A DNA stretch of 64,000 nucleotides from an uncultured Flavobacteriales bacterium (GCA_905479105.1 CAJQLE010000001.1:423628-487627), one strand, 5' to 3'. Shown: positions 35,444 through 41,487, counted from the stretch's first letter. The notes: generated by a model not told the origin, from the letters alone. Numbers and translations are program-made.

Positions 35444-37876
35444 TTAAATGCGCACTTGCAACGTCATAAACATCATTCTACGCTGAGCTGGAATAATTCC
35501 AGGACCGGGATAACCAGTCGCTCTTCTTGTAAAATATATCTGGTCTGAAATGTTATTTAAACTTCCTTCCAACTTGATTCGCTTCCAAGAATAGCTCATA
35601 CTCGCATCCAGCACTTGATAAGAAGGAATAACACCTACAGTGGCATCAGGAAAATACTCTGCATTACTTGCATCCGTATACTGATCTCCGATCCAAGTGA
35701 ATTGCACTCCCGATGCAAATCTTCCTTTCTTAAAGTTCACTCCTGTTTTATAATTGAATACGGGTACATTTTCCACTCTATTCCCATTGAATTCCTCCAC
35801 CTCAGCATTTTCGTAGCGCGCGTCAACAAGGGCTATATTGTTAAACCAAGTCAGCCGCCAAGTTGCATCAGGAGATAACCATTGTGTAAAGTCAATTTCT
35901 TCAACTACTTCGACCCCAATAAAGCGCGCATCAGCTATGTTATCGCGGTAGTTCACAATTCGAGAAACTCCTTCTTCATTTTCAATCGTGGTCAAAGACT
36001 CCCCTATCCGGTTCCTGTATTGCATTAAAAACACACTTGCATCAAAGCTCACGACTTCTCTGAAGAATTTTCCTTTCGCTCCTAAATCGACAGTATAACC
36101 TTTCTCATCTTGCATATTTGGCGCAATCACGATATTGGGATTACTGACATAGATATCAGAGAAATTCATGGCACGATAGTTCTCTGAAGCATTCGCATAA
36201 AGTTCAATATCCCCTCTGCATCGCCAAGCCACACCCATGCCCATCAGGATAATGTTTCGTTCTCTTTGAGTGGAGGCATTATAGCTATTTTGACTCAACA
36301 ATTCACCCGTCAATGGATGCCTATTTTGTTCTGTATAATATCCATCAGATTGAGTTGTGATGTGCTCAAATCGCGCTCCTGGAGTGAGGAACCAACATGA
36401 AGAAAGAGGAATTAGCACTTCCGTAAAAAGCGCTACATTTTGTGACGGAAAGCGAAAATCAGACCCTTCAAGAACTTCTGGATGCAGAAATGAATAATTT
36501 GGGTTATCGTCACCTCCAGCCTTGCCTTGACGATTTCTAGTATCCCCTTGATAAAGTCTTGATCCAATCAATATTGCTCCAGGATTTCCTTTGATATTAT
36601 AGCGTTGAATCAATCGCGTTTCATTCCCAATATTGTTAAACTCACCCAAAATCAGGTCGCGAGCACCACCAGTATCTGTTCTTGCTATACTTCCCAAAAA
36701 GCCAAGTGCTGCCCGACTACTTGAGAGCACGAAAGTTTTGCTATTGATGGTCAGGTTCTTTGAAAGTTGGCCGTTTATGGTCGCGCTAGCTACGTTCCAA
36801 TTTACTTGAAACCAATTTCGATCTCTCAGGCTCACGCTTGGATCAACTTCGAATTGACGATCAGTTAAACCTCCTGCTTGCTGTGTATTATAATAATTAT
36901 GTGTAAAAGCAAGGTCTACCGACCACTTAGATCCAAGCTTTCTGCCTATTTGCGCGTAGAATCCGTTGTTTATAAAATCGGTATTTGGCCTCCACCCTGA
37001 ACCTTCTTTGTGGAGAAAATAACCATAGTAATTCCACTCCCCAGCAGAACCTCCAATGCTATTAAAAGACCCTAAATAGTTATAGCTTCCTATTGTTTGT
37101 CGACTGATGATTTCTAGCGGTTTGTCTGCATTGCCTCGTTTCATCTTAAAATTTAGCAAGCCTCCAAACTGAGTTCCATATTGCAAGGAAGCGGCACCTC
37201 GAACCAACTCAATTTTTTCGACCGCTTCTATAGCTGGAGTATAATAGCTCTCTGGATACCCAAGTGCGTCAGCGCTAATATCATAACCGTCTTGCCTCGT
37301 ATTGAAGTTTGTGGTCCGCTTAGGATCTAATCCGCGTGCACCAATTCCCATTTGCAACCCTCCTGCGTCCGTTTCTTGAATGTTTACTCCAGCCACTTTC
37401 GAAAATATCTGTCGACTATTATTGGTGGACTTGTTAACGGACATTTCATCAGGAAGAATAATTTCATTTTTCTTCGCTGCGTACAGTCCATCAACCTCGA
37501 TGTATTTAAGGTGCGTCATTCCCAAAGAAGACCGATTTTCATTAACTACTTCAATCTCTTTTAGATCATAAGAAATCTTTACTAACTCAACTTTATAAAC
37601 CGGAAATGGAAGTCCGTCTGATGCATTCACTTCCAATGATTTTGACTGATAACCTTCAGCAAAAACAGTGAGAATATGGCCTCCTTCTTCAATATTTCGA
37701 ACTTGAATCTTTCCTTTAGTATCAGACAAAAAACTTTGATCCGTATTATCCAAAAACACCTCAACTCCTACTGAAGACTTACTGTGAAGGACAACATTAA
37801 CATCAAACCCCGACTTCTGGGCGTGCATTAGCGTTGCTGAGCAAATCAAGGAAAATAAGAGCGCAATTATCCTCAT
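35444..37876 (-). CDS. FecA-type TonB-dependent outer-membrane receptor
   Basis: 810 residues from ATG 37876, which overlaps the HTTM gene stop in an ATGA; an upstream in-frame start would add 15 unneeded residues before the signal peptide (MRIIALLFSLICSATLMHAQ). After a ~95-residue carboxypeptidase-like beta domain comes the plug (IFSKVAGVNIQE, GIGARGLDPKRTTNFNTRQD, EKIELVRGAASLQYG), then a 22-strand-type barrel ending MMFMTLQVRI. The GARGLDPKR...YDISAD signature resembles FecA-like ferric-chelate receptors. It is the last gene of a four-gene coupled operon with imelysin-like and HTTM proteins, so iron or another metal chelate is the likely cargo. Confidence 0.9.
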   Translation of the reverse strand: MRIIALLFSLICSATLMHAQKSGFDVNVVLHSKSSVGVEVFLDNTDQSFLSDTKGKIQVRNIEEGGHILTVFAEGYQSKSLEVNASDGLPFPVYKVELVKISYDLKEIEVVNENRSSLGMTHLKYIEVDGLYAAKKNEIILPDEMSVNKSTNNSRQIFSKVAGVNIQETDAGGLQMGIGARGLDPKRTTNFNTRQDGYDISADALGYPESYYTPAIEAVEKIELVRGAASLQYGTQFGGLLNFKMKRGNADKPLEIISRQTIGSYNYLGSFNSIGGSAGEWNYYGYFLHKEGSGWRPNTDFINNGFYAQIGRKLGSKWSVDLAFTHNYYNTQQAGGLTDRQFEVDPSVSLRDRNWFQVNWNVASATINGQLSKNLTINSKTFVLSSSRAALGFLGSIARTDTGGARDLILGEFNNIGNETRLIQRYNIKGNPGAILIGSRLYQGDTRNRQGKAGGDDNPNYSFLHPEVLEGSDFRFPSQNVALFTEVLIPLSSCWFLTPGARFEHITTQSDGYYTEQNRHPLTGELLSQNSYNASTQRERNIILMGMGVAWRCRGDIELYANASENYRAMNFSDIYVSNPNIVIAPNMQDEKGYTVDLGAKGKFFREVVSFDASVFLMQYRNRIGESLTTIENEEGVSRIVNYRDNIADARFIGVEVVEEIDFTQWLSPDATWRLTWFNNIALVDARYENAEVEEFNGNRVENVPVFNYKTGVNFKKGRFASGVQFTWIGDQYTDASNAEYFPDATVGVIPSYQVLDASMSYSWKRIKLEGSLNNISDQIYFTRRATGYPGPGIIPAQRRMMFMTLQVRI

Positions 37877-39216
37877 ATCTGCTCTGATTTTTGAGGAAGA
37901 ATCCATTGTTTGTGCGACCAACTATCCGTTTGAGAAGCCAAGTCTATGTTCGGATCAATAAAAGGAGCGCTGGCGCGTCCATTGAGTGTTACAAAGACAT
38001 CCGCCTTGACGGCAGCAGCGTCCATTCCAAGATTTGAATAATGAGCTTTCAAGTATTGGGCATATTGTATCATAAAATCAGGCTGCGTGCTCATCATCTT
38101 TTCTTGCACGGGCGTCAGGAATTCACTGTTATCAATAAGAATTTTTCTCCCTTCAGAATCTTCTACTTTAAATTGAGCATACCCCGCTTTCTCCGCTAAC
38201 ATCACTCTCCATCCAAATCGATAACCCTGTTCGTGCCAAAACATATTCCCTGGGTAAAGCAAGTATCGAAAAGGCAGCGCTATTTGCACACAGATGAAAA
38301 GAGATACGGCAATAAGAACCGGCTTTGATAAATAAGTGGATTTCCTTGAGTAATCGGAAAGCTTCACCCTGCCTCCAAGGAAAGAATGAATGGTATGATG
38401 AAAATCAGCAGAAAAGAAAATCAACGTTGCACCGATCATAATGAATGGAAACATCCCGATTTGAAATAAAAACCATGTCATTAAATGAAACCCTATAACA
38501 GCCAAATAACCCAGCCATCTCAAACGACTGCTGAGCAAAACAAAAGGAATCAATAAATCATAGAACATTCCTCCCCAACTAAAGGCAAATGCGGTAAGCT
38601 TATATTGAAATAAAGACCCAATCAGCGGAAAATCATCCTGAGCAGGAAGCCATATGGATAGTGGCATCGCTTCAAAAAGCCAATCAGAATTAATCTTTGC
38701 TATTCCCGCAAGAAAATAGACCAACCCCAACTGAAACATGATCAAGTAAATTGACAATGCAGGAACTGAGTCACGGAGTTTAATCAATCCAAGGCGCACA
38801 TCCAATGAATACATTCTGTGAGCAGGCACGAAAATCAATAAAAACGAAATGACACTGACTAAATAGTAATGATTGAGGTAATAGGTCGCGTCTATTAATT
38901 CTATTCCTGTAAACAGGATAAAAAAGAGGGTGGCAGATATGCGATAAAAGGCTCCTAAAGCAATTCCTAGGGCAGACAAAGCCATAAGAGCAAAGCTTAA
39001 ATAATAGCCCCAATCAGGTAGATTGGGCACCCAATAAAAGCCGAAATATTTAAAATGGAAATCAGGAATTATATACTGTTCTTCAATCCACCCATTAAAC
39101 CAAAAGCGAAGAATACTTGCAAGCATAATAAGTCCAAAAACCACGCGAAACGTTACCAATGGTGCGATGGAAATATGCCTGAAAAGACTAGTATTTATAG
39201 CCTGTCTAATCCCCAT
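37873..39216 (-). CDS. HTTM (vitamin K-dependent gamma-carboxylase-like) membrane protein
   Basis: 447 residues. The N-terminal ~290 residues form a multi-helix membrane domain of the HTTM/VKGC superfamily, followed by a ~150-residue soluble part. YFLAGIAKINSDWL includes Lys174 at the place of the catalytic Lys218 of human gamma-carboxylase (YF-x-AG-x-K-K/x-D-x-DW), and YLNHYYL has His116 near the position of its conserved His. The known enzyme carboxylates glutamate using reduced vitamin K; bacterial homologs are mostly uncharacterised. It overlaps the imelysin gene by 11 bases and the TonB receptor gene by 4, so it is built with an uptake system. Confidence 0.85.
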   Translation of the reverse strand: MGIRQAINTSLFRHISIAPLVTFRVVFGLIMLASILRFWFNGWIEEQYIIPDFHFKYFGFYWVPNLPDWGYYLSFALMALSALGIALGAFYRISATLFFILFTGIELIDATYYLNHYYLVSVISFLLIFVPAHRMYSLDVRLGLIKLRDSVPALSIYLIMFQLGLVYFLAGIAKINSDWLFEAMPLSIWLPAQDDFPLIGSLFQYKLTAFAFSWGGMFYDLLIPFVLLSSRLRWLGYLAVIGFHLMTWFLFQIGMFPFIMIGATLIFFSADFHHTIHSFLGGRVKLSDYSRKSTYLSKPVLIAVSLFICVQIALPFRYLLYPGNMFWHEQGYRFGWRVMLAEKAGYAQFKVEDSEGRKILIDNSEFLTPVQEKMMSTQPDFMIQYAQYLKAHYSNLGMDAAAVKADVFVTLNGRASAPFIDPNIDLASQTDSWSHKQWILPQKSEQI

Positions 39217-40282
39217 CGTTATCCTGATAGGTTATCTGCACTCCGAGTTGAGAAGGCATATCTGTTTTCAACAGGACAACAAGATTTTGCAATTCTGTAT
39301 GCAGCGCTTCTACCGCTGATGGATTATTCTCTATCTCAGATTTTAGCGAGCTATTAAGCGCACTAATTTTAGTTTCACAATTATCAAACCTATTGATAAT
39401 GGCTTGGCTCAAATTTTCGTTGCCATATTTTGCGTCTAAATTATCGAGGTAATCATCAATCCCTTGACCTTCAGCTCCGATAAATAAATTCTTTATGCCA
39501 ATTAAGTTGGCCAAAAGCAATTCTTTCGATTTGTCTGAATAAACGGCTTCAACAAGCTCAGGTTGAGCTACTCCAAGAGTTTTAAGCCCTAGTGGAATTG
39601 CCACTTTAGCATTTTTCAATAACTCAAAATCAAAATTGAGTTCATTCACCATCAGGCCAAGTGAGCTTCCTACAGAAGTTCCTGAATTTGATGCAAATTC
39701 TTGATCGTAACCATCATTCCATTTAGAAATCACCGTGTTGAGTTTCTCTGAGATTAAATCAAGATTTTGTTCGAAGTATAATAGTGCCTTTTCTTGAGTG
39801 AATTGCTCTAGACTATCATTTCTAAATAATAAGAAATCCAAAGCCGGAAAGCCTTTCGCATCGCTGTTTTGTGCTGAGAATAGGTCATAAGAACCTGATT
39901 CCATATTTGCCTTAAGTTGCGATGTATCCAATGGAAAAGTATTAAGCATCAAACGCAAGCTTTCTTCTGCGGCTGGACCTACCTCAAATGGAGAGCAAGA
40001 TTGCCACGAAACATAAGCCGCGATAAACGAGGTTCTGACCGCAATAAATTCTTGTTGGTTAGGCGAAGATTTAAACATTTCAAAATCAGCTTCGAGCTGC
40101 TGAACATCTGATAGAAGCTTGCTGTAAGATGGCATTATTACATTCTCAGCCATTTCTTTAAGCATGTCTTCACGCGCAAAAGGAGACCCAACTGGCTCTC
40201 CTGGGTTATTGTCTTTACAGCCTATCGATGCTTGCATGAAAACAGCTGCTATGATGGCGAAGGGAATGGCTTTAATGGACAT
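39206..40282 (-). CDS. Imelysin-like (peptidase M75 family) lipoprotein
   Basis: 358 residues. Lipobox ASIGC gives Cys22 as the anchor. The helical mature part (NVIMPSYSKLLSDVQQL, AVRTSFIAAYVSWQSCSPFEVGP, GFPALDFLLF) is that of imelysin-like proteins, a family tied to iron uptake (IrpA, EfeO relatives). The family motif GxHxxE reads GFPALD at 144-149, so the His and Glu are replaced; a metal-binding role through that motif is doubtful. It starts on the last base of the DUF4856 gene stop and overlaps the HTTM gene by 11 bases. Confidence 0.88.
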   Translation of the reverse strand: MSIKAIPFAIIAAVFMQASIGCKDNNPGEPVGSPFAREDMLKEMAENVIMPSYSKLLSDVQQLEADFEMFKSSPNQQEFIAVRTSFIAAYVSWQSCSPFEVGPAAEESLRLMLNTFPLDTSQLKANMESGSYDLFSAQNSDAKGFPALDFLLFRNDSLEQFTQEKALLYFEQNLDLISEKLNTVISKWNDGYDQEFASNSGTSVGSSLGLMVNELNFDFELLKNAKVAIPLGLKTLGVAQPELVEAVYSDKSKELLLANLIGIKNLFIGAEGQGIDDYLDNLDAKYGNENLSQAIINRFDNCETKISALNSSLKSEIENNPSAVEALHTELQNLVVLLKTDMPSQLGVQITYQDNDGD

Positions 40283-41367
40283 TATAATGCGCTTTTAATA
40301 TTGTCCATTTCATAAATGGTCGAAAGTTGATCGCGAGCTGATTGCAGGTCTTGAGCGCTTACCTCGTAAAAATTAGCGCCAATTTTGGTCAGCACTTCAT
40401 CCAACTCATTGTTGGAAATGATTTTATCTGGGTTATAGAACAACGATTCAATAAATACATACGCTTCAGATAGAACATGATTTCTGGTGTGATCATCGCC
40501 CAAATTGTCCACCGCTTCATTCAAGTGGTGAATGATGGTGGCAACACAGCCCTTTTCCCAATTTTTGCGCACTTCAACAATAGCCGCATCACGCAAATCA
40601 TATTCCTTATTGTCTATTGCGGCTCTTCCCATTCTAAACGCTTCACTAAGTGATGCATTAGAAGAAAGTAAATCATTTCGTCTGTCACAGTATTTGCCCC
40701 AAAACCTCAAACTTTCAGTACTTGCAGGAAAGTCATTTGAAACTCCCAAATAACCATACGCCTCATCCCAATGGTGTTGCATAGCTGTCCCTTGTCCTTC
40801 AACAACGGTCTCATTATCAACATTCATTTTATCATTATCGAGATAAACTGCCGTTGCTTGATAATAGAATACAGCACCCATGATGGTTTTCTCAATCATC
40901 TCGGACAATTCCACCCCATTTTCATCATATAATCGGATGCTTCCCGAAGTATTCTCAGAAAAACCCGCCACACCATTAACCGCTTCATTCTGGCTGGTAC
41001 TAATCAATTCGATTTGATCAAAGTACGCTTCCACCTTTTGAACGTGTGGGCCAAAACATTTATCTGATAGCTGCTTCGAAGAAGAAAATGAGAAGTTACC
41101 TCCGCCATTTTCATTGGCATTTGAGAACATTTCCATCAATACCTCAGACTCGATTTGATCTTTGGCTTTAATGGCAGTTTCAATATATGAAACCATCTCA
41201 TCCAATTGATCAAGCCTTGCTATTTGACCGCTATAATCAACATTATCAAAGGAATAAGTAGAGGGAACTGTAAACTTCTTCTCGCGTATTTGAACTTCGT
41301 CCTTACAAGAAGAAACCCCCAATAGTAAAGCCATACAAGTCAGCGGAAACAATTTTGATACGAGCAT
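40282..41367 (-). CDS. DUF4856 lipoprotein
   Basis: 361 residues, first gene of the operon. Lipobox LGVSSC gives Cys21. YSFDNVDYSGQIARLDQLDEM, AMQHHWDEAYGYLGV and RFWGKYCDRRN are typical of the DUF4856 family, known mainly from Bacteroidota and found with imelysin-like proteins. It is all-helical, with HH-W-DEA as a possible metal-binding feature. Its function is unknown; a periplasmic or surface binding partner of the TonB receptor is a reasonable inference. Confidence 0.85.
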   Translation of the reverse strand: MLVSKLFPLTCMALLLGVSSCKDEVQIREKKFTVPSTYSFDNVDYSGQIARLDQLDEMVSYIETAIKAKDQIESEVLMEMFSNANENGGGNFSFSSSKQLSDKCFGPHVQKVEAYFDQIELISTSQNEAVNGVAGFSENTSGSIRLYDENGVELSEMIEKTIMGAVFYYQATAVYLDNDKMNVDNETVVEGQGTAMQHHWDEAYGYLGVSNDFPASTESLRFWGKYCDRRNDLLSSNASLSEAFRMGRAAIDNKEYDLRDAAIVEVRKNWEKGCVATIIHHLNEAVDNLGDDHTRNHVLSEAYVFIESLFYNPDKIISNNELDEVLTKIGANFYEVSAQDLQSARDQLSTIYEMDNIKSAL

Positions 41368-41400
41368 TATTTTTATTTAGACTGATTTTAAATAACAATG

Positions 41401-41408: not shown

Positions 41409-41430
41409 TCAGCAGGAGCTACTCAAGGCA

Positions 41431-41448
41431 ATACCCTATTTGGGGTAT
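41431..41448 (-). promoter_or_regulatory. Inverted repeat, candidate operator for the TonB/HTTM operon
   Basis: ATACCC, 6 bases, GGGTAT: a perfect 6+6 inverted repeat overlapping the putative -33 region of the operon promoter. It is separate from the terminator hairpin next to it. It does not look like a Fur box (GATAAT repeats). Confidence 0.5.
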
Positions 41449-41451
41449 ATT

Positions 41452-41487
41452 CAAAAAAAAGCCCTGACAAAATATGCCAGGGCTTTC
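41452..41487 (-). terminator. Intrinsic terminator after the PKD lipoprotein gene
   Basis: Minus strand: AAAGCCCTG and CAGGGCTTT pair around an 11-base loop, followed by a T-run. It separates the PKD gene from the downstream operon. Confidence 0.82.

What the first reader, a model, noticed from the sequence alone, without database searches (positions are those of the whole stretch)
35444..41367. DUF4856-imelysin-HTTM-TonB operon: gamma-carboxylase-like enzyme built into an uptake system
Seen: four genes overlapping by 1, 11 and 4 bases, with their own promoter. The HTTM protein keeps a Lys (174) and a His (116) where human gamma-carboxylase has catalytic and conserved residues. Known: imelysin-like proteins and FecA receptors are linked to iron; VKGC carboxylates Glu to a metal-binding residue. 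Inferred: the HTTM protein could modify the two lipoproteins, for example to form metal-binding carboxyglutamate, or act as a membrane redox partner. None of these roles is proven in Bacteroidota.
Basis: partly seen in the sequence, partly recalled or inferred. Interest (0 to 1): 0.72.

Follow-up and report, generated by a model that had tools for sequence, protein, structure and literature searches.

The report
Iron-controlled vitamin K carboxylase operon
Many Bacteroidota carry a bacterial relative of the human blood-clotting enzyme that uses vitamin K to modify proteins, locked into a four-gene, iron-controlled uptake operon, so bacteria may use this chemistry to help capture iron.

Summary
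Four overlapping minus-strand genes (DUF4856 lipoprotein, imelysin lipoprotein, HTTM protein, TonB-dependent receptor) lie behind their own promoter. The third is not a generic HTTM protein but a vitamin K-dependent gamma-carboxylase (VKGC) homologue over its whole length; its AF2 model matches human GGCX 42-511 at Z 33.5. The base K218 (K174), N159/H160 (N115/H116) and the core of the menaquinol pocket are kept, most of it invariant in 59 of 59 operon-type homologues. Human residues 512-758, including most of the propeptide-binding part, are missing.

In 296 Bacteroidota genomes, 60 of 78 VKGC copies sit beside an imelysin and 46 beside DUF4856. In a second set, 69 of 80 loci show DUF4856-imelysin-VKGC-TBDR in this exact order. 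A Fur box lies upstream in 112 of 125 operons (background 2.6%). In Riemerella, four consecutive genes annotated the same way rise 2-3-fold in low iron (PMC5609570).

So the iron link is close to certain and the catalytic site is intact. Glu carboxylation of an operon partner is the leading mechanism but unproven: no Gla-like Glu cluster exists and no substrate is known.

The parts
40282..41367 (-). DUF4856 lipoprotein, first gene of the operon
   Evidence: PF16148 E 1.1e-37; lipobox Cys21 invariant in 50 sequences; invariant G135, K160, Y226, H297, E301; AF2 pLDDT 91, pTM 0.87, mostly helical
39206..40282 (-). Imelysin (M75) lipoprotein with GFPALD in place of the GxHxxE motif and an invariant C-terminal DGD
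   Evidence: PF09375 E 3e-36; relatives 3n8u and 3pf0; C22, E220, E245, D356-G357-D358 invariant in 46 sequences
37873..39216 (-). Vitamin K-dependent gamma-carboxylase homologue (HTTM plus VKGC lumenal domain), 447 aa
   Evidence: PF05090 4e-74 and PF22777 4e-54; phmmer to human GGCX E 3e-32; AF2 pLDDT 94, Z 33.5 over 435 residues to 9wf3; active site kept
35444..37876 (-). TonB-dependent receptor (siderophore-receptor-like) with weak CarbopepD-reg domain; ATG ends at 37876, 4-base overlap with VKGC
   Evidence: PF00593, PF07715; PF13715 below its cut-off; best NCBIfam TIGR01783, below its cut-off; start codon options
41375..41393 (-). Fur box ATTTAAAATCAGTCTAAAT, 7 bases before the DUF4856 ATG
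   Evidence: 16/19 to the Riemerella Fur box; one of 3 perfect pattern matches in the 2.79 Mb genome
41401..41408 (-). -7 element TATGTTTG (TAnnTTTG type)
   Evidence: sequence; 20 bp from a TTG at 41429-41431; the element itself is found near the box in only 18 of 112 operons (null 4.5%)
41429..41431 (-). -33 element TTG
   Evidence: sequence; weak on its own
41459..41485 (-). terminator-like hairpin followed by a T-run that closes the upstream PKD gene, so the operon probably starts its own transcript
   Evidence: sequence AAGCCCTGGCATATTTTGTCAGGGCTT followed by a T-run

Best explanation
This is a Fur-repressed iron-acquisition operon whose inner-membrane enzyme is a true VKGC-family protein that most likely still uses menaquinol, O2 and CO2 to carboxylate Glu on the periplasmic side. 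When iron is short, Fur leaves the box and the four genes are made. VKGC takes menaquinol from the membrane, deprotonates it with K174, and uses the oxygenated quinol as a strong base on a Glu held by N115/H116/Y332. The Glu belongs to an operon partner in transit to the outer membrane: most likely the DUF4856 lipoprotein, otherwise the imelysin or the receptor. The resulting Gla gives a malonate-like Fe ligand, so the lipoproteins can hand iron to the TonB receptor. Shown: operon, Fur box, catalytic residues, predicted fold, a menaquinone synthesis gene; published: iron response of the Riemerella counterpart. Inferred: topology, carboxylation, which partner is the substrate, that Gla binds iron.
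For: Conserved order DUF4856-imelysin-VKGC-TBDR. Fur box in 112/125 operons against 2.6% of 893 other genes and none directly before 15 non-operon VKGC genes; the same motif precedes SUF genes and, with one mismatch, an FTR1 gene in this genome. A VKGC copy that lost its partner genes (L094) still has the box. Riemerella: four consecutive genes rise 2.1-3.1x at low iron and 1.4-1.9x in the fur mutant (PMC5609570). N159, H160, K218, W223, G259, F286, H287, F294, F299, W390 invariant in 59/59, Y395 is Y or F, matching the quinol and Glu sites in the GGCX-MK4 structure paper (PMC12589487). GGCX fold over the whole length. Positive-inside counts put the active site in the periplasm, 14 K+R inside against 3 in the short outside loops. 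menD present. All 68 VKGC genomes have COX1, as an O2-using enzyme needs (weak). The operon-type VKGC is one clade, 100/100.
Against: No Gla-like cluster: at most 6 Glu per 30 residues in DUF4856 and 5 in imelysin, with only 1-2 invariant Glu each. Human 512-758 is absent, K217 is Ala, the C99-C450 disulfide and Y425/R436 are not kept. No partner is strictly constant: Roseivirga keep DUF4856+VKGC only, others VKGC+TBDR. No VKOR in this genome and no VKOR association in the phylum. From memory, the Leptospira homologue was reported without carboxylation activity (Rishavy 2005; paper not held).
Confidence: 0.42

Rival explanations
1. The enzyme keeps the menaquinol-oxygenase half of the reaction but not protein carboxylation; it serves as a quinol-linked redox partner for iron handling, for example reduction of ferric iron held by the lipoproteins.
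For: Propeptide-binding region missing; no Gla-like Glu clusters; canonical imelysin clusters contain a di-haem oxidoreductase (DHOR), and in L188 a DHOR gene sits in one operon with VKGC; Leptospira report recalled from memory.
Against: The Glu-holding residues N159 and H160 are invariant in 59/59 and Y395 is Y/F, which a pure redox role would not need; no haem or flavin site seen.
Confidence: 0.22
2. VKGC carboxylates a small molecule or short peptide (such as an iron chelator) in the periplasm rather than a large protein, and the receptor and lipoproteins handle that product.
For: Propeptide exosite absent, while animal GGCX can act on short peptides without it (own knowledge); VKGC with the TBDR but no lipoprotein in L135 and L185.
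Against: No recurrent biosynthesis genes in the operon in the loci seen.
Confidence: 0.13
3. VKGC is a non-catalytic maturation or insertion factor for the lipoproteins, as HTTM proteins without the lumenal domain may be.
For: Tight co-expression and gene overlap; HTTM proteins occur in peptide export or modification loci (own knowledge).
Against: Invariant catalytic lysine and quinol pocket over the whole clade and in non-operon paralogues.
Confidence: 0.09
4. The unit imports a metal other than iron, or haem, and the Fur-box signal reflects a related metalloregulator.
For: Imelysins of the solved structures showed no specific iron or haem binding (PMC3143127).
Against: Riemerella genes respond to iron and fur; in this genome the motif precedes SUF and FTR1 genes.
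Confidence: 0.07

Closest known systems
Human gamma-glutamyl carboxylase (GGCX; PF05090 plus PF22777; PDB 9wf3, 9bvk, 9l6q)
   Same: Fold of human 42-511 at Z 33.5, rmsd 2.8 A over 435 residues; K218, N159, H160, W223, F286, F294, F299, H287, W390 all kept
   Different: Ends at human 511; K217 is Ala; no C99-C450 disulfide; M401 is Val; iron-regulated operon; no Gla-domain substrate known
Riemerella anatipestifer RAYM_09779-09794 (PMC5609570)
   Same: TonB receptor, 'vitamin K-dependent gamma-carboxylase', imelysin lipoprotein, hypothetical protein as four consecutive iron- and Fur-responsive genes
   Different: Listed in a table without comment; that RAYM_09794 is DUF4856 was not checked here
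Imelysin-DHOR iron operons (ICMP/IrpA, PA4370-PA4373; IPPA 3pf0; PMC3143127)
   Same: Imelysin lipoprotein in a Fur-linked operon; a Pro replaces the His of GxHxxE as in IPPA; the IPPA chain also ends in DGD
   Different: No di-haem oxidoreductase in the window operon; VKGC, DUF4856 and TBDR instead
XusABC iron-piracy system of Bacteroides (PMC13142918)
   Same: Iron-starvation-induced outer-membrane receptor with partner lipoprotein in Bacteroidota
   Different: No VKGC mentioned in the abstract read here; the lipoproteins were not compared

Membership tests
VKGC / GGCX family | HTTM transmembrane domain plus VKGC lumenal domain | tested here: met
   PF05090 4.4e-74 and PF22777 4e-54; Z 33.5 to 9wf3
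VKGC / GGCX family | Catalytic base K218 | tested here: met
   K174, invariant in 59 operon-type and 16 other homologues
VKGC / GGCX family | Glu-holding N159, H160, Y395 | tested here: met
   N115, H116, Y332; N and H invariant, Y/F at the third in operon-type rows
VKGC / GGCX family | Vitamin K pocket (F286, F294, F299, W223, V210, A214, G259) | tested here: met
   F243, F251, F256, W179, V166, A170, G216; M401 is V338
VKGC / GGCX family | Propeptide-binding exosite: PBD-2, Y425, C99-C450 disulfide (animal GGCX) | tested here: not met
   Model ends at human 511; C99 is F55, C450 is Y388, Y425 is L360. Animal-type propeptide recognition is therefore not claimed
VKGC / GGCX family | Menaquinone available in the cell | tested here: met
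   menD TIGR00173 E 8e-98 in G000; the rest of the pathway not checked
VKGC / GGCX family | Glu gamma-carboxylation activity | not testable with these tools
   needs enzyme assay or mass spectrometry
Fur regulon | Fur box at the promoter | tested here: met
   41375-41393, 16/19; 112/125 operons at 15/19 or better
Fur regulon | Induction by low iron / fur deletion in this organism | not tested
   published only for the Riemerella counterpart
Imelysin (M75) | PF09375 match | tested here: met
   E 3e-36; 3pf0 E 4e-6
Imelysin, IrpA/ICMP subfamily | GxHxxE motif | tested here: not met
   GFPALD at 144-149; P146 and D149; filed as IPPA-like, not IrpA-like
EfeUOB / imelysin-DHOR system | DHOR or FTR1 partner in the operon | tested here: not met
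   Gene maps; DHOR shares an operon with VKGC in L188 and adjoins the operon in L134
DUF4856 | PF16148 match | tested here: met
   130 bits against a cut-off of 22

The most novel reading that the evidence does not exclude
A bacterial vitamin K reaction serves iron capture: a Fur-controlled, menaquinol-driven carboxylase without the animal propeptide exosite makes gamma-carboxyglutamate on an outer-membrane iron-capture lipoprotein or receptor, so Gla would act as an iron ligand in bacteria.
Probability: 0.35. Interest if true: 0.92.

Novelty: new variant of a known kind. Interest (0 to 1): 0.74.

Why it matters
What bacterial VKGC homologues do is an open question as far as could be found here. 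This gives a defined test system: an iron-inducible operon, an intact catalytic site, three candidate substrates and a clear readout (+44 Da, iron uptake). If carboxylation is confirmed, Gla would be a bacterial modification used for iron, and GGCX would have a functional bacterial counterpart that recognises its substrate without the animal propeptide site. Even if carboxylation is absent, a widespread Fur-controlled VKGC needs explaining.

Tried and rejected
(1) DUF4856 as a hidden imelysin: hhalign gave probability 90, but after trimming the signal peptide it fell to 1, so the hit came mainly from the signal peptide; not supported. (2) A known fold for DUF4856: Foldseek E above 0.8; VIA best Z 9.6 to FliS over 94 residues in the C-terminal four-helix bundle, within chance for helical bundles; imelysin chains were not listed, which does not exclude them. 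(3) A Gla domain in the lipoproteins: none. (4) A VKGC-specific Glu in the imelysin: E220 is fixed in VKGC-linked copies and mostly D in IrpA-type copies, but 3pf0 of Psychrobacter also has E there, so it is not diagnostic. (5) VKOR as recycling partner: 16 of 68 VKGC genomes against 72 of 296 overall, p = 1. (6) A surface-export signal on both lipoproteins: acidic residues at +2..+6 are enriched in DUF4856 (0.33 against 0.13 overall), weakly in imelysin (0.19 against 0.12); only suggestive (signal described in PMC5080379, found, start of abstract only). (7) The Leptospira VKGC paper was not held.

Full report
Observation. The TBDR start is the ATG ending at 37876; the longer ORF to 37921 begins with TTG. 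Pfam gives DUF4856, imelysin, HTTM plus VKGC lumenal domain, and TonB plug plus barrel. Upstream of DUF4856 are a terminator-like hairpin with a T-run, a -33/-7 pair of Bacteroidota type and a 19-bp near-palindrome ATTTAAAATCAGTCTAAAT.

The enzyme. It matches human GGCX by sequence (phmmer E 3e-32, two stretches), and its AF2 model (pLDDT 94, pTM 0.92) superposes on GGCX residues 42-511 with Z 33.5, rmsd 2.8 A over 435 residues, while unrelated rows fall to Z 7.9 and below. Against the residues named in the GGCX-MK4 structure paper (PMC12589487), the window keeps K218, N159, H160, Y395, F286, F294, F299, W223, V210, A214 and G259. In 59 operon-type homologues K218, N159, H160, W223, A214, G259 and the three Phe are invariant. 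Lost are K217 (Ala in 59/59), the C99-C450 disulfide, Y425 and R436, and everything after human 511 (most of the propeptide-binding domain and the arch-like domain). So the catalytic site looks intact and substrate recognition must differ. Positive-inside counts place the active site in the periplasm. The genome has menD and no VKOR.

Conservation of the unit. In 296 Bacteroidota genomes VKGC occurs in 68, DUF4856 in 50 and imelysin in 70. Of 78 VKGC copies, 60 have an imelysin within 6 kb (57 with it only upstream on the same strand) and 46 a DUF4856; only 4 of the counted DUF4856 genes lie apart from VKGC. Related species are not independent, so the p-values overstate, but the pattern covers many families. 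Gene maps and a second set of 80 named loci (69 in full order; the closest relatives of the query, and a few genomes may be shared with the first set) show the same four genes in the same order, including Salibacteraceae, Flavobacteriaceae, Hymenobacter, Saprospiraceae, Fodinibius and Kapabacteria. The maximum-likelihood tree puts operon-type VKGC in one clade, support 100/100, apart from a second VKGC group, most of it next to ribF.

Iron control. Scored against the Riemerella Fur box, 112 of 125 operons have a site of 15/19 or better around the DUF4856 start. Dinucleotide shuffles give 1.6%; 893 other genes in the same loci give 2.6%; VKGC genes of the second group lack it, except that one ribF neighbour scores 15. 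The window's genome has three perfect pattern matches: this operon, a SUF operon and a TPR lipoprotein gene; single-mismatch sites precede an FTR1-cytochrome c permease gene and a multihaem cytochrome gene, among others, and the reversed control pattern also hits about half as often at two mismatches, so the weaker sites are partly chance. In L094 the partner genes are gone but VKGC and its box remain. In Riemerella anatipestifer, RAYM_09779, 09784, 09789 and 09794 rise 2.11, 2.64, 3.07 and 2.41-fold at low iron, and 1.36-1.93-fold in the fur mutant in iron. They stay iron-responsive in the fur mutant, so iron control is not by Fur alone there. That paper lists the VKGC in its table only, and no paper in the held library mentions DUF4856.

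Mechanism. The chain from low iron to expression is well supported. That the enzyme performs quinol-driven base chemistry is supported by invariant residues. That it carboxylates a Glu is inferred from the invariant Glu-holding residues. That the substrate is DUF4856 is a guess from Roseivirga loci, where only DUF4856 and VKGC remain behind a Fur-like box; in L135 and L185 only VKGC and the receptor remain, without a box, so the receptor is a fair alternative. No Glu cluster exists, so modification of one or two positions is expected: candidates are DUF4856 E301 or E153 and imelysin E220 or E245. O2 use agrees with the presence of COX1 in all 68 VKGC genomes, but only 16 genomes lack COX1 and most of those are of one family.

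Verdict. Real, widespread, iron-controlled, with an intact VKGC catalytic site; modification unproven. Novel as a setting and variant of VKGC rather than as a new fold.

Noticed in passing
window 39206-39217 (imelysin C-terminus): All 46 VKGC-linked imelysins end in Asp-Gly-Asp at the C-terminus; Psychrobacter IPPA (3pf0) also ends in DGD, while IrpA-type copies do not.
   Followed up: partly
L091-L102 (second VKGC group): A second VKGC group in one family (f5, Flavobacteriaceae-like) sits just after ribF, in many cases before serS, without a Fur box, yet keeps the catalytic residues; its role is unknown.
   Followed up: partly
L094 6983-8353: A VKGC of the operon clade whose DUF4856, imelysin and receptor genes are gone, but whose Fur box remains, between similar flanking genes as in L060.
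   Followed up: partly
L188 2147-9782: Two imelysins, a di-haem oxidoreductase, VKGC and TBDR in one row, joining the classical imelysin iron operon with VKGC.
   Followed up: partly
L229 475-8075: DUF4856 in a genome without COX1 or VKGC lies in a SusD-type locus with DUF4302 and Peptidase_Mx1 lipoproteins.
   Followed up: no
L210 2501-3927 (G000:C1:512900): A perfect Fur-box copy identical to the window's lies in front of a TPR lipoprotein gene of unknown role.
   Followed up: no
L230 5476-7344 (Paracoccus albus plasmid): A VKGC homologue (34% identity, 98% cover) outside Bacteroidota, next to a divergent DUF393 gene and without iron genes nearby.
   Followed up: no
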